From positions 62,001-126,000 of the forward strand of contig CAMGZM010000008.1 of the NCBI GenBank assembly GCA_946183145.1: a stretch of DNA of 64,000 nt. Reading direction: 5' to 3'. The notes below the pieces were generated by a model. That model searched no databases. It was not told where the DNA came from and saw only the letters and a program-made list of their open reading frames with translations. Shown here piece after piece: positions 48,977-55,243 of the stretch. The DNA comes from an uncultured Fretibacterium sp. (GTDB taxonomy: Bacteria > Synergistota > Synergistia > Synergistales > Aminobacteriaceae). Numbering within the stretch: position 1 is the first letter of the stretch; the number at the start of each line of letters is the position of its first letter. A program made the translations under genes and the position numbers.

Positions 48977-50116
48977 TTGAAATCGCTATTCATATGCAAC
49001 ACGTACATGCAGGTCATAATAGCAGTCCAAGCAAAAATAAGGCTGTTTGCTGAAGATGATGTTGATATAGTTCTCTCAGATAGCAGCATCAACGCTGACA
49101 AAAAAGCAGAGGGGCTTCGCAAAACAGGATTATTCCGGCGGGTGAAGTATATCAAGACAAAAGCAGTCTCAAAATATTCAAGGTTCTCGAAAATATTTGG
49201 TGTTGTCAGCGCATTTTTCATGAAGAATAACATGTATTCCGATCTTTTTTGGGATGATTTGGATTATGACCGTATATTTTTCTACAATCCCGGTGTTGAT
49301 ACGTTTGCTGCGTTCGATAAAGCATTAAGATTATCAGGCAGAAAGAATCCCCCTGAACTCATACGCATTGAAGAAGGCATACTCACACCGCCTTGGCTTC
49401 CTTTGCTTGAATACGGGATTGGAACAGGCGAGCTTGACGGACGCTCAACAGTTTTTCACATTCTCTGCAAAATCACGGGGCGGCCTGATCTGGTCAGCAA
49501 TACGCGGAAATACATGTGCTTTTACCCTGAGCTTCTCGGAACATCACCGCTTATGAAAAATATGGAGCGCAAAGATTACCCGCATATACGTATTCCCTTC
49601 CTCACAAGCAACAAGGATTTTCTCGAAAAACTCAACACCGTTTTTGACTATGACCCGTCAGCAAATTCATTCCCGCAGAAATATATATACTTTGCAACTT
49701 CATCGGACATTGACGGAAATCCTGTAGGCGAGACGGAGCTTATCATAAAAATTTCTGAGCTTGTCGGAAAAGATAATCTCCTCGTGAAAGTTCACCCGCG
49801 CGACGGAAGGGACGTTTTTGAACGCGCAGGACTCACAGTCAGCAGAAACTCCGCGCTACCCTGGGAGGTCATACAGCTCAATTATGACTTCACGAAACAT
49901 GTATTTATCTCTCTGTCTTCAGGAAGCACGCTTAACATCACGGCCATGAAGAACGAAAATATCCCGGTGTTTATGCTTTTTCCTCTCGTTGCGGGAAAAG
50001 ATAAGCAAATCGACAGCTATTGTGTTAATATGAAAAAGACTCTTGAAGCTCTTCAGGCTTTGGGCGTTTGCAGGTCAGTGAAAATTACGGACAAGTTAGG
50101 AGATGTGATAATGTGA
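48977..50116 (+). CDS. GT52-like (sialyltransferase-type) glycosyltransferase
   Basis: 379 residues from TTG 48977 (AAGGAG 10 nt upstream). SLFICNTYMQVIIAVQAKI at the N-terminus and DNLLVKVHPRDGRDVFERAGL (about 275-295), a K-x-HPR motif with the nucleotide-binding His as in sialyltransferases of GT52/GT80. ISLSSGSTLNITAMK and PVFMLFPLV follow. Family members transfer sialic acid or related ulosonic acids from CMP-sugar. It overlaps the next gene by 4 nt. A NeuA-like cytidylyltransferase 3 kb downstream would make the donor. The assignment is by motif and context; similarity is distant. Confidence 0.65.
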   Translation: MKSLFICNTYMQVIIAVQAKIRLFAEDDVDIVLSDSSINADKKAEGLRKTGLFRRVKYIKTKAVSKYSRFSKIFGVVSAFFMKNNMYSDLFWDDLDYDRIFFYNPGVDTFAAFDKALRLSGRKNPPELIRIEEGILTPPWLPLLEYGIGTGELDGRSTVFHILCKITGRPDLVSNTRKYMCFYPELLGTSPLMKNMERKDYPHIRIPFLTSNKDFLEKLNTVFDYDPSANSFPQKYIYFATSSDIDGNPVGETELIIKISELVGKDNLLVKVHPRDGRDVFERAGLTVSRNSALPWEVIQLNYDFTKHVFISLSSGSTLNITAMKNENIPVFMLFPLVAGKDKQIDSYCVNMKKTLEALQALGVCRSVKITDKLGDVIM

Positions 50117-51464
50117 AAGGCACAATCAAGATTTCAGCACCATATGTTGAGCAGACCGACTCGGAAATTTTCGGCTCGGCTGTGAGATTGGCGGCGGACG
50201 TGGAAATGATTAACCCGAACACGGGAGTCAATGAGAAACGCCCGCTTTTCTTTGAGTTCGCGCGAAGGTACGAGGAATATTTATGCCCGGAGCGTTCCGA
50301 CGCTTTTGTGATGGGGCTTCTCTCAACGGCTATGGAGAATGACTGCAATATAGAGTTCGAGACTCCCATGACTGACCGCCTGTTTTACCAGATGAATGAC
50401 GACTACCTGCCTATGATGGCGAAATACAACGCTAATTTCCCGCTGTCTGACATAAGGCTATCAGGCCCGGTAACATCAGCAGAATTACTTACCCGGGGGG
50501 GGGGTATGGAGTTGCAACGGGCTGTTCCTGCGGTGTTGATTCGCTCTATACAGTCTACAAGAAAACACACTGCAGTGTTGACAGGTATAACCTGACGCAC
50601 CTTTTCTGCCATTCCTGCGGAACACTTGACTGCAACGAGGAAAGAATAAAGGCTCTGTACACAAGAATTTACAGGCGCGTTGAGAATCTCTCTGCGTATC
50701 TGGGGCTTGAAGCCTGCGGGTGCTGGACAAATATTCACACATTCTACAAGTTCCCGTACAAAATATTCTGCTACTTCTATACAACTACTGCGGCCGGATG
50801 CGTATTTGCCCTGCAAAAATTGTTCAGCGTTTACTACGAGAGTTCAAGTTACCCGCTCGAACAAATACACCTTGAGGCACTCCAGAATTACAGCGGGACT
50901 CTTGATGGCTCAATGCTGGATATTTACACGCTGCCTTGCATGAACACAGATACGCTCACATTCTATTCTGCCGGAACTGAAGCAACAAGAATCGAGAAGC
51001 AGGAAGCAATAGCAGATTATCCCGCGGCGCAGAAATTTCTCTCAGTATGCGGAATAGAGTATGACGGAGGAGAGATTGCAGAGAACAAATACAACTGTTC
51101 CCGCTGTGAAAAATGCGTCAGGACAATGACAAATTTCTACGCAATAAACAAGCTGGATAATTTTGCAGAAGTTTTTGACGTTCAGGACTACAAGGCAAAT
51201 TTCGCAAAGCGTCTCGGCCGATGGATGGGAATATGCAAGAAACATTACATTCATGATTTGATGCCCCGTCTCAGACAGAACAACATAAAAATTCCGTTCG
51301 GTGCGCGTGTATATGCATTGCTTTTTTGGAGGCCGTATAGCTTTCTCAAGAAGAAATTGAGAAACTCGCGCTTTGTGAGAAGGCTTTACTACAAGTTCAA
51401 TATTGACAGGAAGATTCACGGTTACAGAAGTTCAGTATCAGAAGCATACAAGGATTTGATGTAA
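50113..51464 (+). CDS. QueC-like PP-loop enzyme A, out of frame at a G10 tract
   Basis: GTG start at 50113, inside the end of the GT52-like gene and aligned with paralog B. N-terminal domain of about 130 residues (KGTIKISAPYVEQTDSEIF, RPLFFEFARRYEEYLCP) of unknown function. A run of ten G (50495-50504) puts the frame off, with a stop at 50593-50595. With 8 or 11 G the frame continues as YGVATGCSCGVDSLYTVY, a PP-loop (SxGxDS) of ATP-pyrophosphatases, and CSRCEKCVRTMTNFYA, like the QueC zinc cluster, through to KFNIDRKIHGYRSS. Full length would be about 450 residues. It may activate and modify a carboxylate on the glycan. Confidence 0.7.
50495..50504 (+). repeat. Homopolymeric G10 tract inside PP-loop gene A
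   Basis: Ten G after ACCC, preceding the PP-loop. The gene is in frame with 8 or 11 G and out of frame here. Confidence 0.9.
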
Positions 51465-53657: not shown

Positions 53658-55243
53658 TGGGAAGTATTCAGCTCCTTGACTGCACATTGAGGGACGGAGG
53701 ACACCTCACAGGCGGGAAATTCGGCGAAAATATTATCAGGTACGTACTTCAGAAACTTGTTGACGCGAAAATCGACATCATAGAAGCAGGCTTCCTCATG
53801 AATGAGCAGTATACTTCTGATTACGCAAGGTTCAAGAGTATTGCTGATGCAAGAAAAGTGCTTCCGGCGGATAAAGGATCGTCAAAAATTTCTCTCATGG
53901 CCGATTTTGTTGACCTTTCAGAAATTGAACCGTGCAACGGAACTGTTGACATTATACGGCTGTCATTCAAACATTTCCGTCTTGACTGGGCATTGAAAAC
54001 CGCTCGTATTCTCATCGACAAAGGCTATAAAGTCTTCATTAATCCCGTGAACTGCAATATATATTCAGATGAGCAATATATAGAAGTCCTGAAGAGAGTC
54101 AACGAAATTCACCCGTACGCATTTTCGATCGTTGATACTTTCGGGGCGTTAAGGATGAGGAGTCTTTCACGGTTCTATTACCTTGTGGACTCGAATCTTG
54201 ACAGCGATATTCACATCGGGCTTCACCTTCACGAAAATTTAGGGCTTGCGTACTCACTCGCGCAGCACTTCATAACAATCAACGAGGGAAAACGCGACAT
54301 AGTGATTGACGCTTCACTTCTCGGAATGGGACGCGCACCGGGGAATTTATGCATCGAGCAGATTATGGGACATTTGAATTATTATTACGGCGGGCAATAC
54401 AACACGGCAGCCGCATATGACGCTATAGACGACTGCATAGTGAATCTTAAGCGCAATACTCAATGGGGGTACGCGATACCTTACGCGCTTTCGGCAAAAT
54501 ATCAGCTTCACAGGACATACGCGGAGTTTCTCATGAACAAGTGGAGGCTTCATACGAGGGACATCGAGCAGATACTCTCAGAGATTCCCAAAGAAGAGTC
54601 GATTTTGTTCAACGAGGAATTTGTAGAAAGGCTTTACCGTGATTTTGTGTCAGTGAAGTATGATGACGCGGATAACCTGAAGAATTTTGCTGACGAACTG
54701 AGAGGAAAAAACGCGGTGATTGTTGCGCCGGGTTCATCACTTTCTGAGGCTGAAAACAGAGAGCGGGTCAAAAATTACGTTAAGGATAACAACGCTGTAG
54801 TGATTGCTGTGCATTTTATGCCGGATTTCGTGAGCTGCGATTACCTTTTCTACACGAATATAAAACGCTTCGAGATAAGCAGGGCGGGTGAATTTTTCCG
54901 AAAGCTAATCATTACGTCGAACATTCTGCGCTACAACCCGGACGAAAAATGCAGGTACGTTTTTGAATGGGCAAGGCTCGCGAATCATGACGGGATATAT
55001 TCAGACGACTCGACACTTATGCTTGTGAATCTTCTGAGATATTGCGGAGTGAAGGAGATTGCCGCGGCGGGTTTTGACGGCTTCACAGCACAGAGCAGCC
55101 CTTTTTACAGCGGCGACAGTGTTCACGCAAACGGCTTCAGCAGGGGAAATGATTTCGACAAAACGAGGGAGCTTACAGCGCGGGTAATAAGGGAAAAATA
55201 TTCGGGCGCAATAAAATTCCTCACACGATCAATTTACGAGTGA
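53657..55243 (+). CDS. HMGL-type aldolase fused to a DUF115-like domain
   Basis: 528 residues. Residues about 1-330 are a DRE-TIM (HMG-CoA lyase/oxovalerate aldolase-like) barrel: LLDCTLRDGGHLTGGKFGE at the start, DIIEAGFLM, IHIGLHLHENLGLAYSLAQ with the metal HxH, and DASLLGMGRAPGNLCIE. From about 355 the second domain begins KNAVIVAPGSSLSEAENRE, the shape of DUF115/Maf-like motility-factor glycosyltransferases (VGaGPSL). It has no phosphopantetheine or biotin domain. The barrel could form or split the C-C bond of an ulosonic-acid-like precursor; the DUF115-like part may transfer a nucleotide sugar. The gene is intact and in frame. Function unproven. Confidence 0.7.
   Translation: MGSIQLLDCTLRDGGHLTGGKFGENIIRYVLQKLVDAKIDIIEAGFLMNEQYTSDYARFKSIADARKVLPADKGSSKISLMADFVDLSEIEPCNGTVDIIRLSFKHFRLDWALKTARILIDKGYKVFINPVNCNIYSDEQYIEVLKRVNEIHPYAFSIVDTFGALRMRSLSRFYYLVDSNLDSDIHIGLHLHENLGLAYSLAQHFITINEGKRDIVIDASLLGMGRAPGNLCIEQIMGHLNYYYGGQYNTAAAYDAIDDCIVNLKRNTQWGYAIPYALSAKYQLHRTYAEFLMNKWRLHTRDIEQILSEIPKEESILFNEEFVERLYRDFVSVKYDDADNLKNFADELRGKNAVIVAPGSSLSEAENRERVKNYVKDNNAVVIAVHFMPDFVSCDYLFYTNIKRFEISRAGEFFRKLIITSNILRYNPDEKCRYVFEWARLANHDGIYSDDSTLMLVNLLRYCGVKEIAAAGFDGFTAQSSPFYSGDSVHANGFSRGNDFDKTRELTARVIREKYSGAIKFLTRSIYE

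What the first reader, a model, noticed from the sequence alone, without database searches (positions are those of the whole stretch)
48977..55243. Candidate pathway for a new CMP-activated sugar acid without NeuB
A NeuA-like cytidylyltransferase and a GT52-like transferase imply a CMP-linked ulosonic acid, but no sialic-acid synthase NeuB is present. Instead the next gene is an HMGL-type aldolase fused to a DUF115-like domain, next to two PP-loop enzymes. The DRE-TIM barrel normally joins or splits oxo-acids with acyl groups or aldehydes, which could supply the C-C bond.
Basis: inference. Interest (0 to 1): 0.72.

Follow-up and report, generated by a model that had tools for sequence, protein, structure and literature searches.

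The report
Switchable aldolase route to CMP-sugar acids
A bacterial surface-sugar gene set pairs a pyruvate-type aldolase with an enzyme that normally activates sialic-acid-like sugars, which suggests a different way of building such sugars, and the run of genes carries on/off switches made of repeated G bases.

Summary
The gene set exists, but not as read. Three genes in a row (two PP-loop-like paralogues and the NeuA-like cytidylyltransferase) are each broken out of frame at a run of G (10, 8, 11): candidate phase-variable genes, all OFF here. The aldolase fusion is intact. The genome does hold PseI/NeuB and KdsA, each with its own cytidylyltransferase, so "no NeuB" holds only for the locus. 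Yet the idea survives in stronger form. The genome has three such aldolase fusions, each directly next to a cytidylyltransferase (two NeuA-like, one KdsB-like). In 56 loci from several phyla the partner is a cytidylyltransferase (30) or a thiamine-diphosphate enzyme (21; one locus has both, 6 neither), and the partner has swapped between KdsB- and NeuA-like kinds repeatedly. Of 23 genomes with the cytidylyltransferase pair, none has KdsA over the cut-off and 14 have no true NeuB. Sequence and fold point to 4-hydroxy-2-oxo-acid (pyruvate) aldolases; the C-terminal domain has the Maf/MptE/sialyltransferase fold. Best reading: a pyruvate-aldolase route to CMP-activated 2-keto-3-deoxy sugar acids, phase-variable here. 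Substrate and product are inferred; I found no biochemistry. The PP-loop genes are not conserved partners.

The parts
47177..47770 (+). maltose/galactoside O-acetyltransferase-like protein, 197 aa; same-strand neighbour upstream
   Evidence: PF12464 and PF00132 over cut-off
47767..48972 (+). O-antigen ligase-like membrane protein, 401 aa; neighbour upstream
   Evidence: PF04932 36.9 bits, cut-off 31.7
48977..50116 (+). glycosyltransferase of the polysialyltransferase/GT52-like kind, 379 aa
   Evidence: PF07388 15.0 bits, below the 23.3 cut-off; homologues beside six other cytidylyltransferase-aldolase loci; the one in L090 (phmmer E 1.5e-12) passes PF07388
50113..51464 (+). PP-loop-like gene, copy 1, out of frame in this sequence
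   Evidence: open fragments on both sides of the G run in different frames; start codon inferred from likeness to copy 2
50495..50504 (+). G10 tract in PP-loop copy 1
51529..52879 (+). PP-loop-like gene, copy 2, out of frame in this sequence
   Evidence: 77% nucleotide identity to copy 1 before the tract, 61% after it; intact relatives with open frames of 383-451 aa in congeners
51911..51918 (+). G8 tract in PP-loop copy 2
52972..53657 (+). NeuA/PseF-like cytidylyltransferase, out of frame in this sequence
   Evidence: PF02348 on the part after the tract, 28.6 bits, cut-off 22.6; frames; intact paralogue on contig C3
53109..53119 (+). G11 tract in the cytidylyltransferase gene
53657..54640 (+). 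DRE-TIM aldolase domain, about residues 1-328 of the fusion
   Evidence: PF00682; fold: 3dxi Z 31.9, DmpG 1nvm Z 30.0
54656..55243 (+). C-terminal domain with the Maf/MptE/SteA/sialyltransferase fold
   Evidence: model pLDDT 82; Z 8.3-10.9 against Maf, MptE, SteA, CstII and mammalian sialyltransferases, next row 5.9

Best explanation
The aldolase fusion at 53657-55243 is most likely a pyruvate aldolase that joins pyruvate to a sugar aldehyde (perhaps a sugar phosphate) and so makes a 2-keto-3-deoxy, that is 4-hydroxy-2-oxo, sugar acid. The cytidylyltransferase next to it activates this acid with CTP, and a GT52/polysialyltransferase-like enzyme (48977-50116) passes it to a surface glycan. This replaces the PEP-dependent NeuB/KdsA step. 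In this genome the branch is phase-variable: G runs in three consecutive genes, among them the cytidylyltransferase, decide whether the sugar is made, and in this sequence all three are off. Shown: gene order, broken frames, recurrence of the pair, homology, fold. Inferred: the reaction, the substrate, the CMP product, the role of the C-terminal domain (its fold is one known to bind cytidine nucleotides in sialyltransferases) and the on/off behaviour.
For: Three of three fusions in the genome lie directly next to a PF02348 cytidylyltransferase, out of six such hits; by a rough count chance gives about 1e-7. Across 56 loci a cytidylyltransferase is the direct neighbour in 29 and within four genes in 30. 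The direct partner is KdsB-like in 15 and NeuA-like in 14, and swaps several times on the aldolase tree (KdsB label 8 changes, NeuA 7): different proteins, same activation step. A phosphatase (HAD or KdsC-like) lies within four genes in 21 of the 30, mirroring KdsA-KdsC-KdsB. KdsA over the cut-off: 0 of 23 genomes with the pair (control genomes 4 of 14); true NeuB: 9 of 23, none in 14. KdsB-like partners keep R10, R15, K19, R78, D100, K143 and D235 (E. coli numbering) in 15 of 15, while other conserved positions shift (Q98 to N in 9 of 15, R164 to K in 11 of 15). The closest characterised relatives are DmpG-type 4-hydroxy-2-oxovalerate aldolases; R12 and D13 are kept in 55 of 56 (one gap), H190 and H192 in 56 of 56. 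The other partner class is acetolactate-synthase-like; the review PMC12247030 (passages read) says that ErwE, such an enzyme, prefers 4-hydroxy-2-oxo acids as donors, the very product class proposed here. Leisingera caerulea: fusion, annotated KdsB and HAD hydrolase side by side in a polysaccharide cluster.
Against: I found no assay of any enzyme of this subfamily (searches listed under Tried and rejected). The fusion scores far below the 4-hydroxy-2-oxovalerate aldolase equivalog cut-off (54.3 against 286 bits). The DmpG base His21 (recalled) is Tyr in 45 of 56 fusions, though His in the window's. The window's own cytidylyltransferase is out of frame, so the branch is not working in this sequence. 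No phosphatase lies within four genes of the three fusions of this genome. The C-terminal domain occurs also in the ThDP class, so it need not be a CMP-sugar transferase. Many of the 23 genomes are metagenome assemblies by title and the others are unnamed, so single absences are soft. The 56 loci were found with profiles seeded from cytidylyltransferase-paired fusions, so 30 of 56 is not an unbiased frequency.
Confidence: 0.55

Rival explanations
1. The cytidylyltransferase works with the genome's pseudaminate (or Kdo) pathway as a second, switchable activating enzyme, and the aldolase belongs to an unrelated sugar.
For: An intact PseI set (contig C10) and a KdsA-like protein (C7) exist. The window fragment's only NCBIfam match is PseF (31.4 bits).
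Against: Both sets have their own cytidylyltransferase (PseF 269 bits, KdsB 202 bits, both over cut-off). The pair recurs in genomes with neither NeuB nor KdsA: 14 of 23. 31.4 bits is far under the PseF cut-off of 205.7.
Confidence: 0.12
2. The fusion is a Claisen-type DRE-TIM synthase (isopropylmalate/homocitrate-like) that adds an acyl group from acyl-CoA to a 2-oxo acid.
For: Same superfamily; LeuA, homocitrate and citramalate synthases align.
Against: Pyruvate-aldolase chains rank above all Claisen enzymes by sequence profile (51-83 against 46.5 bits or less) and at the top of the fold lists; no LeuA regulatory domain matched.
Confidence: 0.13
3. The locus is an ordinary decaying glycan cluster: the three frame breaks are fixed pseudogenes or assembly errors in homopolymers, not switches.
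For: All three genes are out of frame at once; homopolymer runs are error-prone; some contigs of this assembly begin or end at G runs.
Against: 32 distinct G8-or-longer tracts were examined; several interrupt surface or glycan genes such as a pyruvyl transferase, an MBOAT acyltransferase, an O-antigen ligase-like gene and a DUF4910 gene, others are in frame, including one in a PP-loop paralogue on C18. In the three window genes the break lies at the tract, not elsewhere.
Confidence: 0.15
4. The CMP-activated product is a phosphonate rather than a sugar acid.
For: Nucleotidyl activation of phosphonates is widespread (PMC6697681, title and start of abstract in the listing); a recalled PEP-mutase motif was seen near 2 of 56 loci (L209, L232).
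Against: 54 of 56 loci lack the motif among the 669 neighbouring ORFs looked at; the partners are PF02348 KdsB/NeuA-like, with GT52/polysialyltransferase-like transferases beside some.
Confidence: 0.04

Closest known systems
KdsA-KdsC-KdsB route to CMP-Kdo
   Same: C-C bond enzyme, HAD-type phosphatase and CTP-activating enzyme encoded together; KdsB-like partner with kept catalytic residues
   Different: C-C bond enzyme is a DRE-TIM aldolase, not PEP-dependent KdsA; KdsB positions Q98, R164, Y185 and E210 often differ
PseI/NeuB and NeuA/PseF nonulosonate pathways
   Same: NeuA/PseF-like activating enzyme and GT52/polysialyltransferase-like transferase
   Different: no NeuB at the locus; absent from 14 of 23 genomes with the pair
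DmpG-type 4-hydroxy-2-oxovalerate aldolase
   Same: fold (Z 30.0 to 1nvm) and Arg-Asp and His-x-His residues
   Different: far below the equivalog cut-off; extra C-terminal domain; Tyr mostly in place of the base His; no aldehyde dehydrogenase among the window neighbours tested
BVU_2661 (3dxi), putative aldolase of Bacteroides vulgatus
   Same: closest solved sequence and fold (E 4.1e-23; Z 31.9)
   Different: function unknown; its gene neighbourhood was not examined
YerE/ErwE branched-sugar enzymes (ThDP)
   Same: resemble the other partner class of the same aldolase family; ErwE takes 4-hydroxy-2-oxo acids (PMC12247030, passages)
   Different: no CMP activation of the acid; different end sugar
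Maf flagellin glycosyltransferase / CstII (GT42) / MptE
   Same: fold of the C-terminal domain (Z 9.3-10.9)
   Different: no conserved histidine after the DG motif in the 17-row alignment, so the CstII-type catalytic base (recalled) is not evident

Membership tests
NeuB/PseI-dependent nonulosonate pathway | NeuB-family synthase in the same locus | tested here: not met
   the only NeuB hit of the genome is on contig C10
NeuB/PseI-dependent nonulosonate pathway | NeuB-family synthase in the genome | tested here: met
   PseI 432 bits, cut-off 340
CMP-ulosonate synthetases (PF02348) | profile match over cut-off | tested here: met
   28.6 bits against 22.6 for the fragment
CMP-ulosonate synthetases (PF02348) | intact reading frame | tested here: not met
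   broken at G11
4-hydroxy-2-oxovalerate aldolase (TIGR03217) | equivalog cut-off | tested here: not met
   54.3 bits against 286
4-hydroxy-2-oxovalerate aldolase (TIGR03217) | Arg-Asp and His-x-His active-site residues (recalled for DmpG) | tested here: met
   R12 and D13 in 55 of 56, H190 and H192 in 56 of 56; aligned to 1nvm
4-hydroxy-2-oxovalerate aldolase (TIGR03217) | catalytic base His21 (recalled) | tested here: inconclusive
   His in the window's fusion, Tyr in 45 of 56
4-hydroxy-2-oxo-acid (pyruvate) aldolase activity | turnover of pyruvate plus aldehyde | not testable with these tools
   needs an enzyme assay
LeuA/homocitrate synthase | equivalog or subfamily cut-offs and LeuA regulatory domain | tested here: not met
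   best 41.8 bits against 484.75 for the window's fusion; no regulatory domain in Pfam
DUF115/MptE-like (PF01973) | profile match over cut-off | tested here: not met
   15.6 bits against 34.6; 2 of 17 rows match at E up to 1
DUF115/MptE-like (PF01973) | fold | tested here: met
   8sd5 Z 10.7, Maf 5mu5 Z 10.9
GT42/GT29 sialyltransferases | fold | tested here: met
   CstII Z 9.3-10.3, mammalian enzymes Z 8.3-10.1
GT42/GT29 sialyltransferases | catalytic histidine (recalled) | tested here: inconclusive
   no conserved His column after the DG motif in A4
GT52 / polysialyltransferase (48977-50116) | Pfam cut-off | tested here: not met
   15.0 against 23.3; the homologue in L090 meets it, 25.8
PP-loop ATPases (two copies) | profile match | tested here: not met
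   no convincing match in Pfam, NCBIfam or PDB; motif seen by eye only
phase-variable contingency genes | simple repeat in coding sequence at which the frame breaks | tested here: met
   three genes
phase-variable contingency genes | tract length varies between cells or strains | not testable with these tools
   no reads or sister strains at hand

The most novel reading that the evidence does not exclude
A whole family of DRE-TIM aldolase fusions is a PEP-independent class of ulosonic-acid synthase. It is spread over several phyla, exchanges KdsB-like and NeuA-like partners, and in a sister branch feeds 4-hydroxy-2-oxo acids to ErwE/YerE-like enzymes that make long-branched sugars. In this species the CMP-sugar branch is additionally placed under poly-G phase variation.
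Probability: 0.45. Interest if true: 0.8.

Novelty: new variant of a known kind. Interest (0 to 1): 0.62.

Why it matters
The CMP-sugar acids of bacterial surfaces are made, as far as the standard pathways go, by PEP-dependent synthases (KdsA, NeuB, PseI). A pyruvate-aldolase route would explain cytidylyltransferases that stand without such a synthase, would predict new surface sugars in gut Bacillota, marine Pseudomonadota and this lineage, and would give a function to a structural-genomics orphan family (BVU_2661). It also gives one chemical logic for two gene-cluster types: one 2-oxo acid, either activated with CTP or handed to a thiamine-diphosphate enzyme. The claim is directly testable with intact paralogues.

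Tried and rejected
Rejected: 'no NeuB in the genome'. Rejected: PP-loop enzymes as conserved partners; they match in 8 of 61 genomes, one genus, and no link to the aldolase was seen. Set aside: the shorter HMGL proteins of congeners (L069-L072); no cytidylyltransferase near them. Considered: C-terminal domain as a CMP-ulosonate transferase; weakened because it is present in ThDP-class fusions too and no conserved histidine is seen. Foldseek and VIA on the whole model showed only the barrel, so the C-terminal domain was modelled alone.

Plasmid hits other than Leisingera gave little: Desulfobaculum has a transketolase-like pair, Priestia and Legionella are unrelated contexts; 4 of the 9 plasmid hits were opened. 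Literature: searches showed no paper linking a DRE-TIM or 4-hydroxy-2-oxovalerate aldolase to a cytidylyltransferase. Searches returned 0 papers; two searches listed only 20 of 99 and 20 of 138, so more could be in print. One search used 'Synergistes' on a guess about the lineage that no tool supports. PMC12247030 and PMC3149649: passages only; other papers: search listings.

Biases: one search counts 56 loci; L087 was dropped because it is the same locus as L200. L218 and L220 come from one genome, and L219/L220 are near-copies. In one search only 13 of the relatives' KdsB loci gave a usable frame, plus E. coli and C7, and two of these 15 rows align poorly. Of the 60 places listed, the 33 best were fetched.
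Full report
WHAT IS THERE. On the plus strand the window has a packed run: O-acetyltransferase-like gene 47177-47770, O-antigen ligase-like gene 47767-48972, glycosyltransferase 48977-50116, two PP-loop-like paralogues (about 50113-51464 and 51529-52879), a NeuA/PseF-like cytidylyltransferase (52972-53657) and a 528-aa aldolase fusion 53657-55243. Both PP-loop-like genes and the cytidylyltransferase change frame exactly at a run of 10, 8 and 11 G. The window holds four G runs of 8 or more, and 19 G7 words where 1.96 are expected, 0 of 100 shuffles reaching that.

G RUNS IN THE GENOME. The genome has 108 overlapping G8 words on both strands. In 32 distinct tracts examined I found clear breaks of long frames and also in-frame cases. 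Fragments beside tracts match a polysaccharide pyruvyl transferase, an MBOAT acyltransferase, an O-antigen ligase-like protein, an AMP-binding enzyme and a DUF4910 protein. This is the pattern of phase-variable surface genes. Length variation itself could not be tested, and the genome's lineage is not named by any search.

NEUB AND KDSA. The genome does have PseI, in a PseF-PseB-PseC-PseI-PseH-PseG-like cluster on contig C10 (the PseB, PseC, PseH and PseG names are by likeness, not tested), and one PF00793 protein of about 280 aa on C7 in the same run as a KdsB over the TIGR00466 cut-off. I call it KdsA by context and length; it was not scored with TIGR01362. Each set thus has its own cytidylyltransferase, which leaves the others unexplained.

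THREE PAIRS IN ONE GENOME. The genome encodes three fusions: the window's, one on C4 (39% identity) and one on C3 (35%). Each lies directly next to a cytidylyltransferase: NeuA/PseF-like in the window and on C3, KdsB-like on C4. The genome has six PF02348 hits in all, so chance adjacency of all three is of the order of 1e-7 (assuming about 2400 genes).

ACROSS GENOMES. One scan of genome contigs and a sample of 391 genomes of the class of G066 (54 with a match at 1e-40) gave, with two plasmid loci and this species and its congener G033, 56 loci. A cytidylyltransferase lies within four genes in 30 and directly adjacent in 29; a ThDP enzyme within four genes in 21; one locus has both, six have neither. 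HAD or KdsC-like phosphatases lie within four genes in 21 of 30 and 10 of 21. Homologues of the window's glycosyltransferase occur in six other loci, all with a cytidylyltransferase (Fisher p 0.03 for 7 of 30 against 0 of 20). The best-scoring places were fetched and the profile came from cytidylyltransferase-paired fusions, so these are not population frequencies.

PARTNER EXCHANGE. On the tree of 56 aldolases partner labels are clustered (16 changes, 30.9 in shuffles, none of 200 as low) but KdsB-like and NeuA-like partners interchange repeatedly (8 and 7 changes). Keeping the activity while exchanging the protein points to a shared metabolite, a 2-keto acid to be activated with CTP.

NO PEP SYNTHASE IN MANY. 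Of 23 genomes with the pair, 0 have a KdsA over the TIGR01362 cut-off (19 have weaker matches of 20-135 bits in frames of 340 aa or more, DAHP-synthase-like). NeuB at 220 bits or more occurs in 9 of 23; the other 14 have none or only 28-48-bit matches, at the same places as the DAHP-synthase-like proteins where such were found. Several of these genomes are metagenome assemblies by title and the rest are unnamed, so single absences are weak; together they carry weight.

THE ENZYMES. Sequence profile and fold put the barrel nearest BVU_2661 (function unknown) and then DmpG-type pyruvate aldolases, ahead of the acyl-CoA synthases. Arg, Asp and both His of the metal site are kept. The window's fusion has His where DmpG has its base; most others have Tyr. 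KdsB-like partners keep the seven catalytic-type positions named above in 15 of 15 but differ at other positions conserved in ordinary KdsB, which hints at a sugar acid other than Kdo.

THE OTHER PARTNER CLASS AS A CHECK. In the ThDP class the neighbours include an acetolactate-synthase-like enzyme, an epimerase-like and a DegT-type enzyme, and by likeness CDP-dideoxyhexose genes. A review (PMC12247030, passages) states that ErwE, a YerE-like enzyme, couples a hydroxy-functionalised 2-keto acid to CDP-4-keto-3,6-dideoxyglucose and prefers 4-hydroxy-2-oxo acids, and that MMAR_2332 has a like preference. These are exactly aldol products of pyruvate. I did not check that the ErwE cluster has an aldolase of this family.

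VERDICT. The most likely function is a pyruvate-aldolase route to a CMP-activated 2-keto-3-deoxy sugar acid, here switchable by G runs. What is shown is genetic and structural; the chemistry is inferred.

Noticed in passing
window 40187-40198: G12 run that breaks the frame of a weakly methyltransferase-like gene (39829 to about 40471); a fourth candidate phase-variable gene in the window.
   Followed up: partly
L236, L242, L018, L247, L248, L244 (own genome): G runs in other surface or glycan genes (DUF4910, pyruvyl transferase, MBOAT, O-antigen ligase-like, AMP-binding, PP-loop paralogue); some contigs of the assembly begin or end at G runs.
   Followed up: partly
L067 3338-8909: Congener G033 has an aldolase fusion with a ThDP enzyme, an SDR-like and a DHQ-synthase-like gene, and a kinase-like gene that looks broken at a C9 run (names by likeness).
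   Followed up: no
L209 10543-12615; L232 6381-7688: Possible PEP-mutase motif near two aldolase loci, hinting at neighbouring phosphonate genes (recalled motif).
   Followed up: no
window 12234-12882: Tandem repeat of 341 bases, 1.9 copies, 96% alike.
   Followed up: no
window 55314-56432: EpsG-family gene on the opposite strand, directly after the aldolase.
   Followed up: no
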